Below are positions 39,130 to 43,877 of a DNA stretch of 43,877 nt, in pieces (within the stretch, counting starts at the first letter, position 1; each line of letters starts with the position of its first letter). The notes under the pieces are model-generated. The model was given only the letters and a program-made list of their open reading frames with translations. It made no database searches and had not been told where the DNA came from. The DNA is taken from positions 1 through 43,877 of IMG/VR virus record IMGVR_UViG_3300032242_001137. One strand, written 5' to 3'. Position numbers and translations under genes: made by a program. This DNA is from a virus.

Positions 39130-39730
39130 ATGAAAGTTCTTGTTGCGTGCGAATTTAGCGGCACAGTTAGAGATGCGTTCGTCGCTCTCGGGCATGACGC
39201 TATGTCGTGCGACCTCCTTCCGACCGACAAGGGTGGCCCTCATTACCAAGGTGACATCCGAGATGTCTTGCACTACCCGTGGGACTTAATGATCGCCCAC
39301 CCGCCATGCACGAACTTGTCGGTAAGCGGCGCGGCGCACTTCGCCAAGAAAAAGTGGGGGGGGGCAGCAGGCTTCTGCCTCGTTCTTCATGCTCCTCGCC
39401 AAGGCCGACATACCGATGATCGCTGTCGAGAATCCCGTGTGCATCATGTCGTCGCTTTGGCGCAAACCAGATCAGATCATTCAGCCGTGGCAGTTCGGGC
39501 ACGGCGAAACAAAAGCGACTTGTCTATGGCTCAAGAACCTTCCGAAGCTGACGCCGACGAATGTTGTTTCAGGACGAGAGCAGCGGCTTCATTGGCTGCC
39601 TCCGTCGCCAGACAGGTGGAAGATACGCAGCCTCACATTCAGCGGCATCGCCAAGGCTATGGCCGAGCAATGGGGCGGTGTTGTATCGCCAAAGCTACTA
39701 ACGGAGACACAACTTGACAAGGAAGCGTGA
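39130..39730 (+). CDS. C5-cytosine methyltransferase-like protein, frame broken at a G9 run
   Basis: The N-terminal half from ATG 39130 has MKVLVACEFSGTVRDAF (cofactor loop) and AHPPCTNLSVSG (the PPC catalytic motif). The C-terminal half is in another frame, 39389-39730, with MIAVENPVCIMSS (ENP motif) and QPWQFGHGETKATCLWLK. The frames separate exactly at a run of nine G (39356-39364). With eight G the frame would read through KKKWGGQQASASFFML and give about 200 residues, a normal protein of this phage family. This could be sequencing or assembly error, a phase-variable tract, or a real mutation. As written it would make a truncated, scrambled product of 195 residues. Confidence 0.75.
39356..39364 (+). 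repeat. Homopolymer run of nine G in the methyltransferase-like gene
   Basis: Nine G in a row, the point where the two halves of the gene change frame. Such runs are prone both to sequencing error and to replication slippage. Confidence 0.95.
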
Positions 39731-42048: not shown

Positions 42049-42270
42049 ATGAGCAACGACTTCATACGGATTGAGTTTGTCGGCGGGCCTCTTGATGGTG
42101 CGATCAGACCGATTCACCGAGGTTGCATCGAAGTGCCGCTGGCGTCTGGGGCATTCCTGCACGTTTATCGTCGAGACGAAATCTACATTGGCTACGCCGT
42201 GAAACAGATCATGCGGCACAGCGTGGTCAAAGCAACCTGGGGGAAGAAGAATGACAATTGCGGAAGTTGA
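42049..42270 (+). CDS. 73-residue protein beginning directly after the terminator
   Basis: ATG 42049 (MSNDFIRIEFVGGPLDGAI) is the natural-looking start, with the RIEFxGGPLDG motif I recall from small phage/bacterial proteins. There is no Shine-Dalgarno; the U-tract of the terminator stops four bases before. The gene would have to be read from terminator read-through or as a near leaderless RNA. The C-terminus is basic. Overlaps the next gene by 20 bases. Confidence 0.6.
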   Translation: MSNDFIRIEFVGGPLDGAIRPIHRGCIEVPLASGAFLHVYRRDEIYIGYAVKQIMRHSVVKATWGKKNDNCGS

Positions 42271-42409
42271 CGAGCAGGCGGCGAAGATCGCCGAACTCGA
42301 GTCGCAGCTTGAGCGGCAGATCAAGAAGGCCGCCTACTGGCAAGAACTCTGCGAGACGCTTCGCCTGCGGGCGCAGTCGCTGGCCCACGAACTGGATCAG
42401 ATGCGATGA
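42251..42409 (+). CDS. 52-residue coiled-coil peptide
   Basis: ATG 42251, GAAGAAG upstream. The chain is one amphipathic helix: VDEQAAKIAELESQLERQIK, then AAYWQELCETLRLRAQSLAH. Stop overlaps the next ATG by ATGA. Probably a dimeric coiled coil; function unknown. Confidence 0.6.
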   Translation: MTIAEVDEQAAKIAELESQLERQIKKAAYWQELCETLRLRAQSLAHELDQMR

Positions 42410-42852
42410 ACGACTACCCCACCACCCTCCGCGTGATCGCGTCTTACAAGGCAGGCGAAGACCTCGCCGAACGACTTGCTACGGCGGTCGCCGTGCAGCA
42501 GTCGATGTCAGTGGCACTGCGCAAGGCCGCAGACGAGATTGAGCGGCTTGAGGCTCTTCGCGTTGAGGATGGTAAACAGATGAGCGCATTGATCGCCGAG
42601 TGCCAAGAGATGAAAGACAGGCTTGTGGACGGCGATGATGTCAAGATTTCTTGCAAAAAAACTGACGACGCCCCCGACTCATATGCGAAAAGCGACGAAA
42701 AACATGGCGTTGTCGGTATTAATCGGGTAACCCTCGCCGCAGATGAGCGTGAGGCGATTGACGGCATGGCCTGTTATTTCGACGCGCGAGCGAGCCTGAC
42801 GATGCAGTCGTGGGGGTCGCTGCTTCGGATACTTCTAGAGCGACTGAAATGA
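42406..42852 (+). CDS. Protein with EREAI...LLERL C-terminal module 1
   Basis: 148 residues. N-terminal helical part (TTLRVIASYKAGEDLAERLA, then SVALRKAADEIERLEAL), acidic middle, and C-terminal module LAADEREAIDGMACYFDARA followed by SWGSLLRILLERLK. The same module, an (E/A)ER(E/D)AI helix and an LRxLLER(L/T) helix, ends the proteins at 42849, 43052 and 43602. ATGA overlaps at both ends. Function unknown. Confidence 0.65.
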   Translation: MNDYPTTLRVIASYKAGEDLAERLATAVAVQQSMSVALRKAADEIERLEALRVEDGKQMSALIAECQEMKDRLVDGDDVKISCKKTDDAPDSYAKSDEKHGVVGINRVTLAADEREAIDGMACYFDARASLTMQSWGSLLRILLERLK

Positions 42853-43055
42853 CCGACCTACTTATACGGCTCCGCGTCATGGCTCGTCTCACTGGTCGCG
42901 ACGACGATGCTGACACTGCCGCTGAAGCAGCACGCGAGATAGAGCGTCTGCGTCTCACCGACGCGGAGCGGGATGCGATTAAATGGTGCATCGAACAGTG
43001 GGCTGGGATTAATCGATCAACCACCCTTCGCAACCTGTTGGAGAGAACCAAGTGA
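42849..43055 (+). CDS. Protein with EREAI...LLERL C-terminal module 2
   Basis: 68 residues from ATG 42849. TAAEAAREIERLRLTDAERD is a helix leading into the shared module, whose end is TTLRNLLERTK. A 20-base stretch at 42954-42973 coding LTDAERD is identical to 43277-43296. Stop overlaps the next GTG. It looks like the minimal module with a short N-terminus. Confidence 0.65.
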   Translation: MTDLLIRLRVMARLTGRDDDADTAAEAAREIERLRLTDAERDAIKWCIEQWAGINRSTTLRNLLERTK

Positions 43056-43151
43056 GAATCGACCCCGACGAGTGCCGAGACCCAGACCTCCTTGCCGCAG
43101 AGGTGCGGCGATTGCAGGCCGTAATCGCAGCAGGCGAGCCAACGCTCACCG
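43051..43151 (+). repeat. 101-bp direct repeat, copy 1 (paralogous gene starts)
   Basis: Copy 1 (43051-43151) and copy 2 (43601-43701) share 93 of 101 bases, ending at AACGCTCACCG. It encodes the same N-terminal 33 residues of the genes at 43052 and 43602. Confidence 0.9.
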
Positions 43152-43393
43152 ACAACGATCCAGTGGCGTGGGCGGTGGTGTACCCAAACTACTTGGAGCC
43201 GTATGAATACGAAAGTGACGCTCGTGAATCCGCTTCTGACGATCAAGAGGTCATCCCGCTCTACCGCTCGCCGACCCTCACCGACGCGGAGCGGGAGGCG
43301 ATTGAGTTTTTTGACGCGATCCACAACGAAGGCTACGGAATTTTTGCGAAACACACAGCCACCCTCCGCACATTACTGGAGAGACTGACATGA
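43052..43393 (+). CDS. Protein with EREAI...LLERL C-terminal module 3 and an inserted domain
   Basis: 113 residues from GTG 43052. The first 33 residues (MRIDPDECRDPDLLAAEVRR, then VIAAGEPTLT) are nearly the same as in the protein at 43602. Between two PTLT motifs lies a 44-residue insert DNDPVAWAVVYPNYLEPY...EVIPLYRSPTLT, a W-A-V...VPLYR domain I recall from other phage proteins, before the module EREAIEFF...TLRTLLERLT. No known function. Confidence 0.65.
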   Translation: MRIDPDECRDPDLLAAEVRRLQAVIAAGEPTLTDNDPVAWAVVYPNYLEPYEYESDARESASDDQEVIPLYRSPTLTDAEREAIEFFDAIHNEGYGIFAKHTATLRTLLERLT

Positions 43394-43605
43394 CTGACAC
43401 TGATGCTCTGACAATACAGCCGATGCTTCACGGCGAGGTCTACAAGATTCCGCACCGCATCAACGGGACGGTAGATGGAAAAATTGTAACCCTGCGTATG
43501 GAGACAGAAGATGACGCCCGTGCCATGCACGGCATCATCCGCGATGTGTGCTTTGGGATCGCAGATGTTGTTCGCGTGATGACACCGACGGAGAGGATGA
43601 AGTGA
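43390..43605 (+). CDS. 71-residue protein between two repeat genes, unknown
   Basis: ATGA overlap with the previous gene and GTGA overlap with the next. It lacks the LLERL module: MTDTDALTIQPMLHGEVYKI, then GTVDGKIVTLRMETEDDARA and a C-terminus ADVVRVMTPTERMK. Strand-helix pattern; no recognised family. Confidence 0.55.
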   Translation: MTDTDALTIQPMLHGEVYKIPHRINGTVDGKIVTLRMETEDDARAMHGIIRDVCFGIADVVRVMTPTERMK

Positions 43606-43701
43606 GAATCGATCCCGACGAGTACCGCGACCCAGAACTCCTCGCCGCAGAGGTGCGGCGATTGCGAACCGTAATCGCAGCAGGCGAGCCAACGCTCACC
43701 G
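43601..43701 (+). repeat. 101-bp direct repeat, copy 2
   Basis: See copy 1 at 43051-43151: 93 of 101 bases are the same. The two copies flank the gene at 43390. Confidence 0.9.
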
Positions 43702-43808
43702 CAGAGGAGCGGGAAGCGATTCAAAAAGCATTGAAGTGGGCATTGAATCTGCGTGACACAGGCGTCACTGCCGATTCCCTGCGTTCTATTTTGGAGAGAC
43801 TGACGTGA
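43602..43808 (+). CDS. Protein with EREAI...LLERL C-terminal module 4
   Basis: 68 residues from GTG 43602. N-terminal 33 residues as in 43052 (29 of 33 identical), then directly PTLTAEEREAIQKALKWALN and TADSLRSILERLT. It is 43052 without the 44-residue insert. Stop overlaps the next GTG. Confidence 0.65.
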   Translation: MRIDPDEYRDPELLAAEVRRLRTVIAAGEPTLTAEEREAIQKALKWALNLRDTGVTADSLRSILERLT

Positions 43809-43877
43809 CCGACCCAAACGACCTGCGAAAAATTGAGAAGTGGATGGCTGAAAACAAGGCAGACAAGATGCTGACCA
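43805..43877 (+). CDS. 5' part of a gene cut by the window end
   Basis: GTG 43805, GTGA overlap with the previous stop. The visible 24 residues are MTDPNDLRKIEKWMAENKAD plus KMLT, a basic helical start. If the molecule is circular the frame goes on at base 1 and stops at 108-110 (60 residues). Function unknown. Confidence 0.5.
   Translation, partial: MTDPNDLRKIEKWMAENKADKMLT

What the first reader, a model, noticed from the sequence alone, without database searches (positions are those of the whole stretch)
42406..43877. Chain of small proteins sharing one C-terminal docking-like module on different N-termini
Seen: four proteins (42406, 42849, 43052, 43602) end in (E/A)ER(E/D)AI...LR(x)LLER(L/T), while their N-termini differ, and all are translationally coupled. 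A constant C-terminus with variable heads suggests adaptors that plug into one common partner. I recall similar tails in planctomycete and phage proteins, but no described function. This could be a virus toolkit for redirecting a host complex, or an anti-defence set.
Basis: partly seen in the sequence, partly recalled or inferred. Interest (0 to 1): 0.75.

Follow-up and report, generated by a model that had tools for sequence, protein, structure and literature searches.

The report
Shuffled phage proteins sharing one tail
A row of tiny phage proteins shares one C-terminal module found in at least 273 fetched virus stretches, and a nearly fixed 27-base stretch of DNA inside each gene marks where phages swap the rest of the protein; what the proteins do is still unknown.

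Summary
Four small coupled genes at the right end of a tailed-phage contig end in the same 35-45 aa module. P0003 and P0004 also share their first ~33 residues, so only three head types are present.

The module is large and undescribed: no Pfam or PHROGs family matches the four proteins. I found 346 distinct proteins in 273 loci, all but one from IMG/VR virus contigs. tblastn with three members found none in 50,697 phage records, and ~85,000 prokaryote genomes gave one, in an integron-bearing Cyanobium contig. A planctomycete link is not supported.

The tail has three parts: a block of nearly fixed DNA (B1, encoding LTD[A/E]EREAI), a swappable segment of 12-41 aa (114 clusters), and a block (B2) whose last codons supply a ribosome site and usually the overlapping start of the next gene. 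Segments combine many-to-many with heads. In pairs sharing neither, DNA identity falls from ~86% inside B1 to chance outside. One relative (L004) joins the window's P0002 head to its P0003 segment inside B1.

Best reading: Ea22/DUF551-like mosaic accessory proteins, diversified by recombination at B1. That B1 is the crossover site is inferred. Docking and anti-defence are untested.

The parts
42251..42409 (+). small coiled-coil-like ORF without the tail; overlaps the next start by 4 nt
42406..42852 (+). P0001: head (..ASYKAGEDLAERL..AADEIERL) + tail. A similar head precedes a MazG domain in L002
42733..42759 (+). B1 block of P0001 (CTCGCCGCAGATGAGCGTGAGGCGATT; divergent copy)
42814..42852 (+). 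B2 block of P0001 with SD-like GAG and ATGA hand-over to P0002
42849..43055 (+). P0002: helical head (..REIERLR) + tail; AlphaFold2 gives four helices, H38-50 and H55-67 being the tail hairpin (mean pLDDT 82)
42954..42980 (+). B1 block of P0002; in L004 this head continues, inside B1, into a P0003-like segment
43017..43055 (+). B2 block of P0002 with GGAGAG SD-like sequence and GTGA hand-over
43052..43393 (+). P0003: MRID head + NDPVAW..VIPLYRSP module (predicted beta-beta-alpha-beta) + tail
43145..43178 (+). fusion point in P0003: CTCACCGAC (first 9 nt of B1) runs into AACGATCCAGTGGCGTGG, the start of the PVAW gene seen in L004 and L006
43277..43303 (+). B1 block of P0003 (CTCACCGACGCGGAGCGGGAGGCGATT, consensus form)
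43355..43393 (+). B2 block of P0003 with GGAGAG and ATGA hand-over
43390..43605 (+). gene without the tail, coupled on both sides (ends TERMK*)
43602..43808 (+). P0004: MRID head joined directly to the tail
43695..43721 (+). B1 block of P0004
43770..43808 (+). B2 block of P0004; GTGA hand-over into a gene cut by the contig end

Best explanation
This is a tandem, translationally coupled array of small acidic mosaic phage accessory proteins, built like the lambda Ea22/DUF551 proteins but with a new C-terminal module. Shown: each tail is B1 (27 nt of nearly fixed DNA) + one of 114 swappable segment types under purifying selection + B2, whose last codons carry a ribosome-binding-like sequence and usually the overlapping start of the next gene; heads and segments recombine many-to-many. 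Inferred: the fixed B1 DNA is where homologous recombination joins a head to a different segment, within or between phages, so frame, start signal and coupling survive every exchange. Inferred with low confidence: the proteins are small helical regulators or adaptors (oligomerising heads, helical-hairpin tails) that interfere with host or phage development, and diversity is kept because hosts or rival phages vary. The function itself is not shown.
For: 34 of 43 loop-segment clusters that occur in two or more distinct proteins occur with two or more head types; one (AYYIGTGGPDxVD) occurs with eight. Among 125 representatives found by protein patterns, restricted to pairs sharing neither head nor segment, nucleotide identity per codon is 0.79-0.96 over the first eight codons of B1 (0.61 at the ninth) and about 0.27 ten bases outside; synonymous codon identity in B1 is 0.77 against 0.39 by chance. 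B1 synonymous conservation exceeds that of the neighbouring segment in the same gene pairs (0.86 v 0.72; Wilcoxon 2.8e-7, pairs not independent) and of the neighbouring head (0.84 v 0.64). All 191 exact 26-mer copies in the loci held are in frame in tail ORFs. Base-level junction: L004 equals the window's P0002 for 43 nt into B1 and then continues as a P0003-like segment; L004 and L006 have unrelated heads but share 1337 nt at 94.8% starting at the first base of B1. Hand-over: TGA stop in 126 of 151 clear tails, 4-nt overlap with the next ORF in 78, purine-ended terminal Arg codon in 139; 126 of 270 consecutive tail-gene pairs overlap by exactly 4 nt. Related heads also sit in front of MazG and DUF551 domains, and DUF551 occurs in front of a tail. 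Acidic proteins, median pI 4.96. Arrays lie within 1.5 kb of a contig end in 13 of 51 records against 2.9 expected.
Against: Control motifs in the heads also show raised synonymous identity (0.51-0.67 against 0.29-0.40), so part of the B1 signal is recent common ancestry. B1 copies are no more alike within a genome than between genomes (0.82 v 0.83, p=0.86), so local gene conversion is not supported. Only 16 of 51 records hold RecT or ERF annealing proteins, and the window holds neither. Contig-end enrichment may partly reflect natural genome ends. No functional data; Foldseek found no solved fold.
Confidence: 0.6

Rival explanations
1. Ordinary phage mosaicism plus protein-level selection: the tail is a conserved docking or dimerisation helix hairpin, and the B1 codon uniformity is only recent spread of one ancestral gene, with no role for B1 as a recombination anchor.
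For: Other conserved motifs in these genes also have raised synonymous identity; the tail is predicted as a helix hairpin; segments are under purifying selection, dN/dS 0.15.
Against: B1 is more conserved at synonymous sites than both neighbours in the same gene pairs, and the plateau ends within a few bases. Segments are unrelated between clusters, so whole-module recent spread does not explain B1. L004 and window share a junction inside B1.
Confidence: 0.27
2. Adaptors or anti-defence set: the constant tail docks to one host or phage complex and each head redirects it to another target.
For: Constant tail and variable heads; early-type position near PhoH, HNH and helicase genes; the related Ea22 CTD has been proposed to bind an unknown host protein (PMC10834534).
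Against: The middle of the tail varies between 114 clusters, so it is not one constant docking surface; no defence-linked domain seen in or beside the proteins in the scans made; no function data.
Confidence: 0.1
3. B1 is a dedicated site for site-specific cassette exchange (integron- or shufflon-like), not a homologous anchor.
For: Near-fixed 27-nt sequence always in one orientation per locus; two tail ORFs lie in a Cyanobium contig with an integron integrase (TIGR02249, 2.2e-137) and one attC-like inverted repeat at 1860-1921 of L084.
Against: No recombinase shared by the array phages was identified; no B1-B2 pairing covariation; B1 lies in coding sequence without the inverted-repeat core of known sites; the attC-like site is a single unverified match and overlaps the tail-coding part of the ORF.
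Confidence: 0.03

Closest known systems
Lambda/Stx phage Ea22 (Ead_Ea22) mosaic proteins
   Same: Small acidic early-region phage proteins with a coiled-coil-rich N-terminal part and an exchangeable C-terminal domain of unknown function; genes mosaic (PMC10834534).
   Different: There the head is common and the tail varies; here the tail is common, and its middle and the head both vary. No Pfam match of the four proteins to Ead_Ea22; predicted tail is a helix hairpin, not the alpha-beta Ea22 CTD; tandem coupled array; fixed DNA block.
DUF551 (PF04448) portable domain
   Same: Portable small domain on many unrelated heads; shares a head type (MTDR[DN]xFAAAALTGLL) with tail proteins and occurs directly before the tail in L122.
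   Different: Unrelated sequence; the window proteins do not match PF04448.
Protein-fragment shuffling in phages (PMC10684548)
   Same: Fragments of phage proteins shuffle between otherwise unrelated proteins.
   Different: Here the junction is a near-fixed 27-nt DNA block used across many phages, in an array with overlapping genes. I saw only the title and the start of the abstract of that paper.
Integron gene cassettes
   Same: Tandem small genes exchanged between arrays; two tail ORFs sit in an integron-bearing contig (L084).
   Different: No integrase shared by the phage arrays was found, the repeat is inside the reading frame, and it is not an attC structure.

Membership tests
Ea22 (Ead_Ea22, PF13935) | sequence match to the Ead_Ea22 model | tested here: not met
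   P0001-P0004 have no Pfam match better than E=0.04
Ea22 (Ead_Ea22, PF13935) | acidic protein with helical/coiled-coil N-terminal part and separate C-terminal domain | tested here: met
   median pI 4.96 in 217 proteins; AlphaFold2 helical head plus hairpin tail for P0002
Ea22 (Ead_Ea22, PF13935) | alpha-beta dimeric CTD | tested here: not met
   predicted tail is two helices; oligomeric state not testable
DUF551 | match to PF04448 | tested here: not met
   for window proteins; relatives L002:5580 and L122:811 do carry PF04448 as a separate part
Integron cassette | attC site and integrase in the same element | tested here: inconclusive
   integron integrase in L084 only, one attC-like repeat; the window has a tyrosine integrase not shown to act on B1
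Phage mosaic accessory proteins | same module on several unrelated partner modules in different phages | tested here: met
   34 of 43 multi-member segment clusters have at least two head types; array contigs carry two portal families
Phage homologous recombination locus | cognate recombinase in the same phage | tested here: inconclusive
   RecT in 7 of 51, ERF in 9 of 51, none in the window; Rad52, RecA and Sak types not tested

The most novel reading that the evidence does not exclude
B1 is a DNA element selected for cassette exchange: phages maintain a shared pool of protein segments that are swapped in frame at a 27-bp coding junction, each carrying the start signal of the next gene, giving an integron-like diversification system that works inside genes.
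Probability: 0.15. Interest if true: 0.85.

Novelty: new variant of a known kind. Interest (0 to 1): 0.58.

Why it matters
Phage mosaicism is usually described at gene or domain level, and the junctions are rarely visible. Here the junction is a near-fixed, in-frame 27-bp block repeated through an array, with a ribosome site and start codon at the far end of each unit, so swaps keep frame and translation. That gives a concrete, testable route to combinatorial protein diversity. It also names a large protein family, frequent in environmental phage contigs and absent from the Pfam and PHROGs models tested, which can now be annotated.

Tried and rejected
(1) B1-B2 RNA or DNA hairpin: the two blocks look complementary, but a gene's own B1-B2 duplex energy equals that of random pairings (-21.0 v -21.1) and the hairpin z-score is only -0.97. 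Rejected. (2) Concerted evolution of B1 within a genome: within 0.82, between 0.83. Rejected. (3) Segment and next head travelling together as one cassette: same-loop pairs share their own head in 35 of 127 and the next gene's N-terminus in 16 of 60, about equal. Not supported. (4) C-terminal conservation explained only by the embedded SD and start: explains the last residues (K/T before TGA, purine-ended Arg codon) but not B1. (5) Known family: Pfam, PHROGs and PDB fold searches negative. (6) Host: genome scan and 151 genomes of the Cyanobium family gave one carrier only; host unknown. (7) First head/tail split and block analysis used wrong coordinates or patterns and were redone.

Full report
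WHAT IS THERE. The window is an entire IMG/VR virus record of 43,877 bp with terminase, portal, PhoH and a tyrosine integrase. At its right end lies a chain of overlapping small genes. Four of them (42406, 42849, 43052, 43602) end in L(T/A)xxER(E/D)AI...LRx(L/I)LER(L/T)(K/T). The hand-overs are 4-nt ATGA or GTGA overlaps. P0003 and P0004 share a nearly identical head, so the four proteins show three head types. P0003 carries an extra NDPVAW...VIPLYRSP block.

THE FAMILY. A single-protein search found two relatives. In all, 543 tail ORFs in 273 loci, 359 unique by DNA, 346 distinct proteins. Several loci overlap on the same contig, so 273 is not a count of phages. The tail sits at the extreme C-terminus in most cases (152 of 217 end one residue from the model end). 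In 50 whole records there are 1 to 7 copies, usually clustered. tblastn with three members found nothing in 50,697 phage records, the four window proteins match no Pfam or PHROGs family, and pattern scans of 84,980 GTDB genomes gave one confirmed hit, a Cyanobium contig. Pattern scans find only members close enough to the patterns, so counts are lower bounds. Array contigs carry different portal families, terminases, helicases, RusA and methylases, so more than one phage lineage has the array.

ANATOMY OF THE TAIL. It divides into B1 (nine codons, LTD[A/E]EREAI), a segment of 12-41 residues, and B2 (..AATLRxLLER). In 217 proteins with both blocks recognised there are 188 distinct segments in 114 clusters. 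B2 ends in LLER(L/T)K*, whose codons contain a GGAG-like ribosome site and usually end in AA[A/G]TGA, so the next gene starts inside the stop. Of 151 clear cases 126 use TGA, 90 end in Lys and 78 overlap a next ORF of at least 35 codons by 4 nt; the last Arg codon is purine-ended in 139 against 64% in the background. The conserved last residues are therefore partly a translation signal.

COMBINATORICS. 34 of the 43 segment clusters that occur in two or more distinct proteins occur on two or more different head ends; AYYIGTGGPDxVD occurs on eight. Head parts recur too: MRID, PVAW, CPYV, AIRRLADQD, FAAAALTGLL, EIERLR. Outside the family, a head like that of P0001 precedes MazG in L002, the FAAAALTGLL head precedes DUF551 in L002, and DUF551 precedes a tail in L122.

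THE 27-BASE BLOCK. Among pairs sharing neither head nor segment, restricted to loci found by protein patterns with one representative per combination, identity is 0.79-0.96 in codons 1-8 of B1, 0.61 in codon 9, and about chance (0.27) ten bases outside. Synonymous codon identity is 0.77 against 0.39 expected from head codon usage. B1 exceeds the neighbouring segment (0.86 v 0.72) and the neighbouring head (0.84 v 0.64) in the same gene pairs. Two cautions: other conserved head motifs are also raised (0.51-0.67 against 0.29-0.40), so recent shared ancestry contributes; and the pairs are not independent, so the p-values are indicative only.

JUNCTIONS SEEN DIRECTLY. L004 is identical to the window's P0002 gene for 43 nt, into B1, and then continues as a P0003-like segment. 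L004 and L006 have unrelated heads but share 1337 nt at 94.8% from the first base of B1. P0003 itself reads CTCACCGAC (first nine bases of B1) and then AACGATCCAGTGGCGTGG, the start of a PVAW gene present in L004 and L006. A homology limit at B1 alone would be expected wherever heads differ; the L004/window case is stronger because both parents are in hand. Arrays lie within 1.5 kb of a contig end in 13 of 51 records against 2.9 expected. Assembly breaks in a variable locus would do this, but so would natural genome ends.

IS IT TRANSLATED. Same-cluster segments from different contigs have pN 0.10, pS 0.47 and dN/dS 0.15, and all 191 exact 26-mer copies are in frame in tail ORFs. AlphaFold2 gives four helices for P0002 (mean pLDDT 82, pTM 0.51) and, for P0003, helix, beta-beta-alpha-beta, helix hairpin (mean pLDDT 75, pTM 0.42). 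No solved structure matches.

MECHANISM. Shown: mosaic array, conserved B1 DNA, constrained segments, overlapping genes. Inferred: homologous exchange through B1 makes new head-segment combinations that stay in frame and coupled. The recombinase is unknown: RecT in 7 and ERF in 9 of 51 records, none in the window; host RecA or untested phage proteins could serve. Guessed: the proteins act as small helical regulators or adaptors like Ea22, whose CTD has been proposed to bind an unknown host protein (PMC10834534).

COMPARISON. The closest known kind is the Ea22/DUF551 mosaic of lambdoid phages. The window proteins are not members by sequence but resemble it in size, charge, mosaicism and modular plan. 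Differences: constant tail with variable middle, tandem array, fixed DNA junction. I rate it a new variant of a known kind.

Noticed in passing
L084:194-2663: Cyanobium sp. FGCU52 contig JANWUS010000039.1: integron integrase (TIGR02249), a MazE/MazF-like pair present twice (300-nt exact direct repeat), and two tail-family ORFs; phage mosaic genes may have entered an integron.
   Followed up: partly
L002:3252-3698: A head like that of P0001 fused to a MazG domain (PF03819, 1.6e-6) instead of the tail.
   Followed up: partly
L122:811-1227: DUF551 domain directly followed by the tail module.
   Followed up: partly
window:43145-43270: PVAW..VPLY module: predicted beta-beta-alpha-beta mini-domain, found in dozens of tail proteins and matching no Pfam family in P0003.
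   Followed up: partly
window:39130-39730: Two overlapping ORFs (39130-39717 and 39389-39730) look like one gene split by a frameshift; the pieces read as a DNA-modification-like protein, from memory only.
   Followed up: no
L032 and similar heads: CPYVxGxTTxHCSLTPF motif with two spaced cysteines in many heads; possible metal site, not examined.
   Followed up: no
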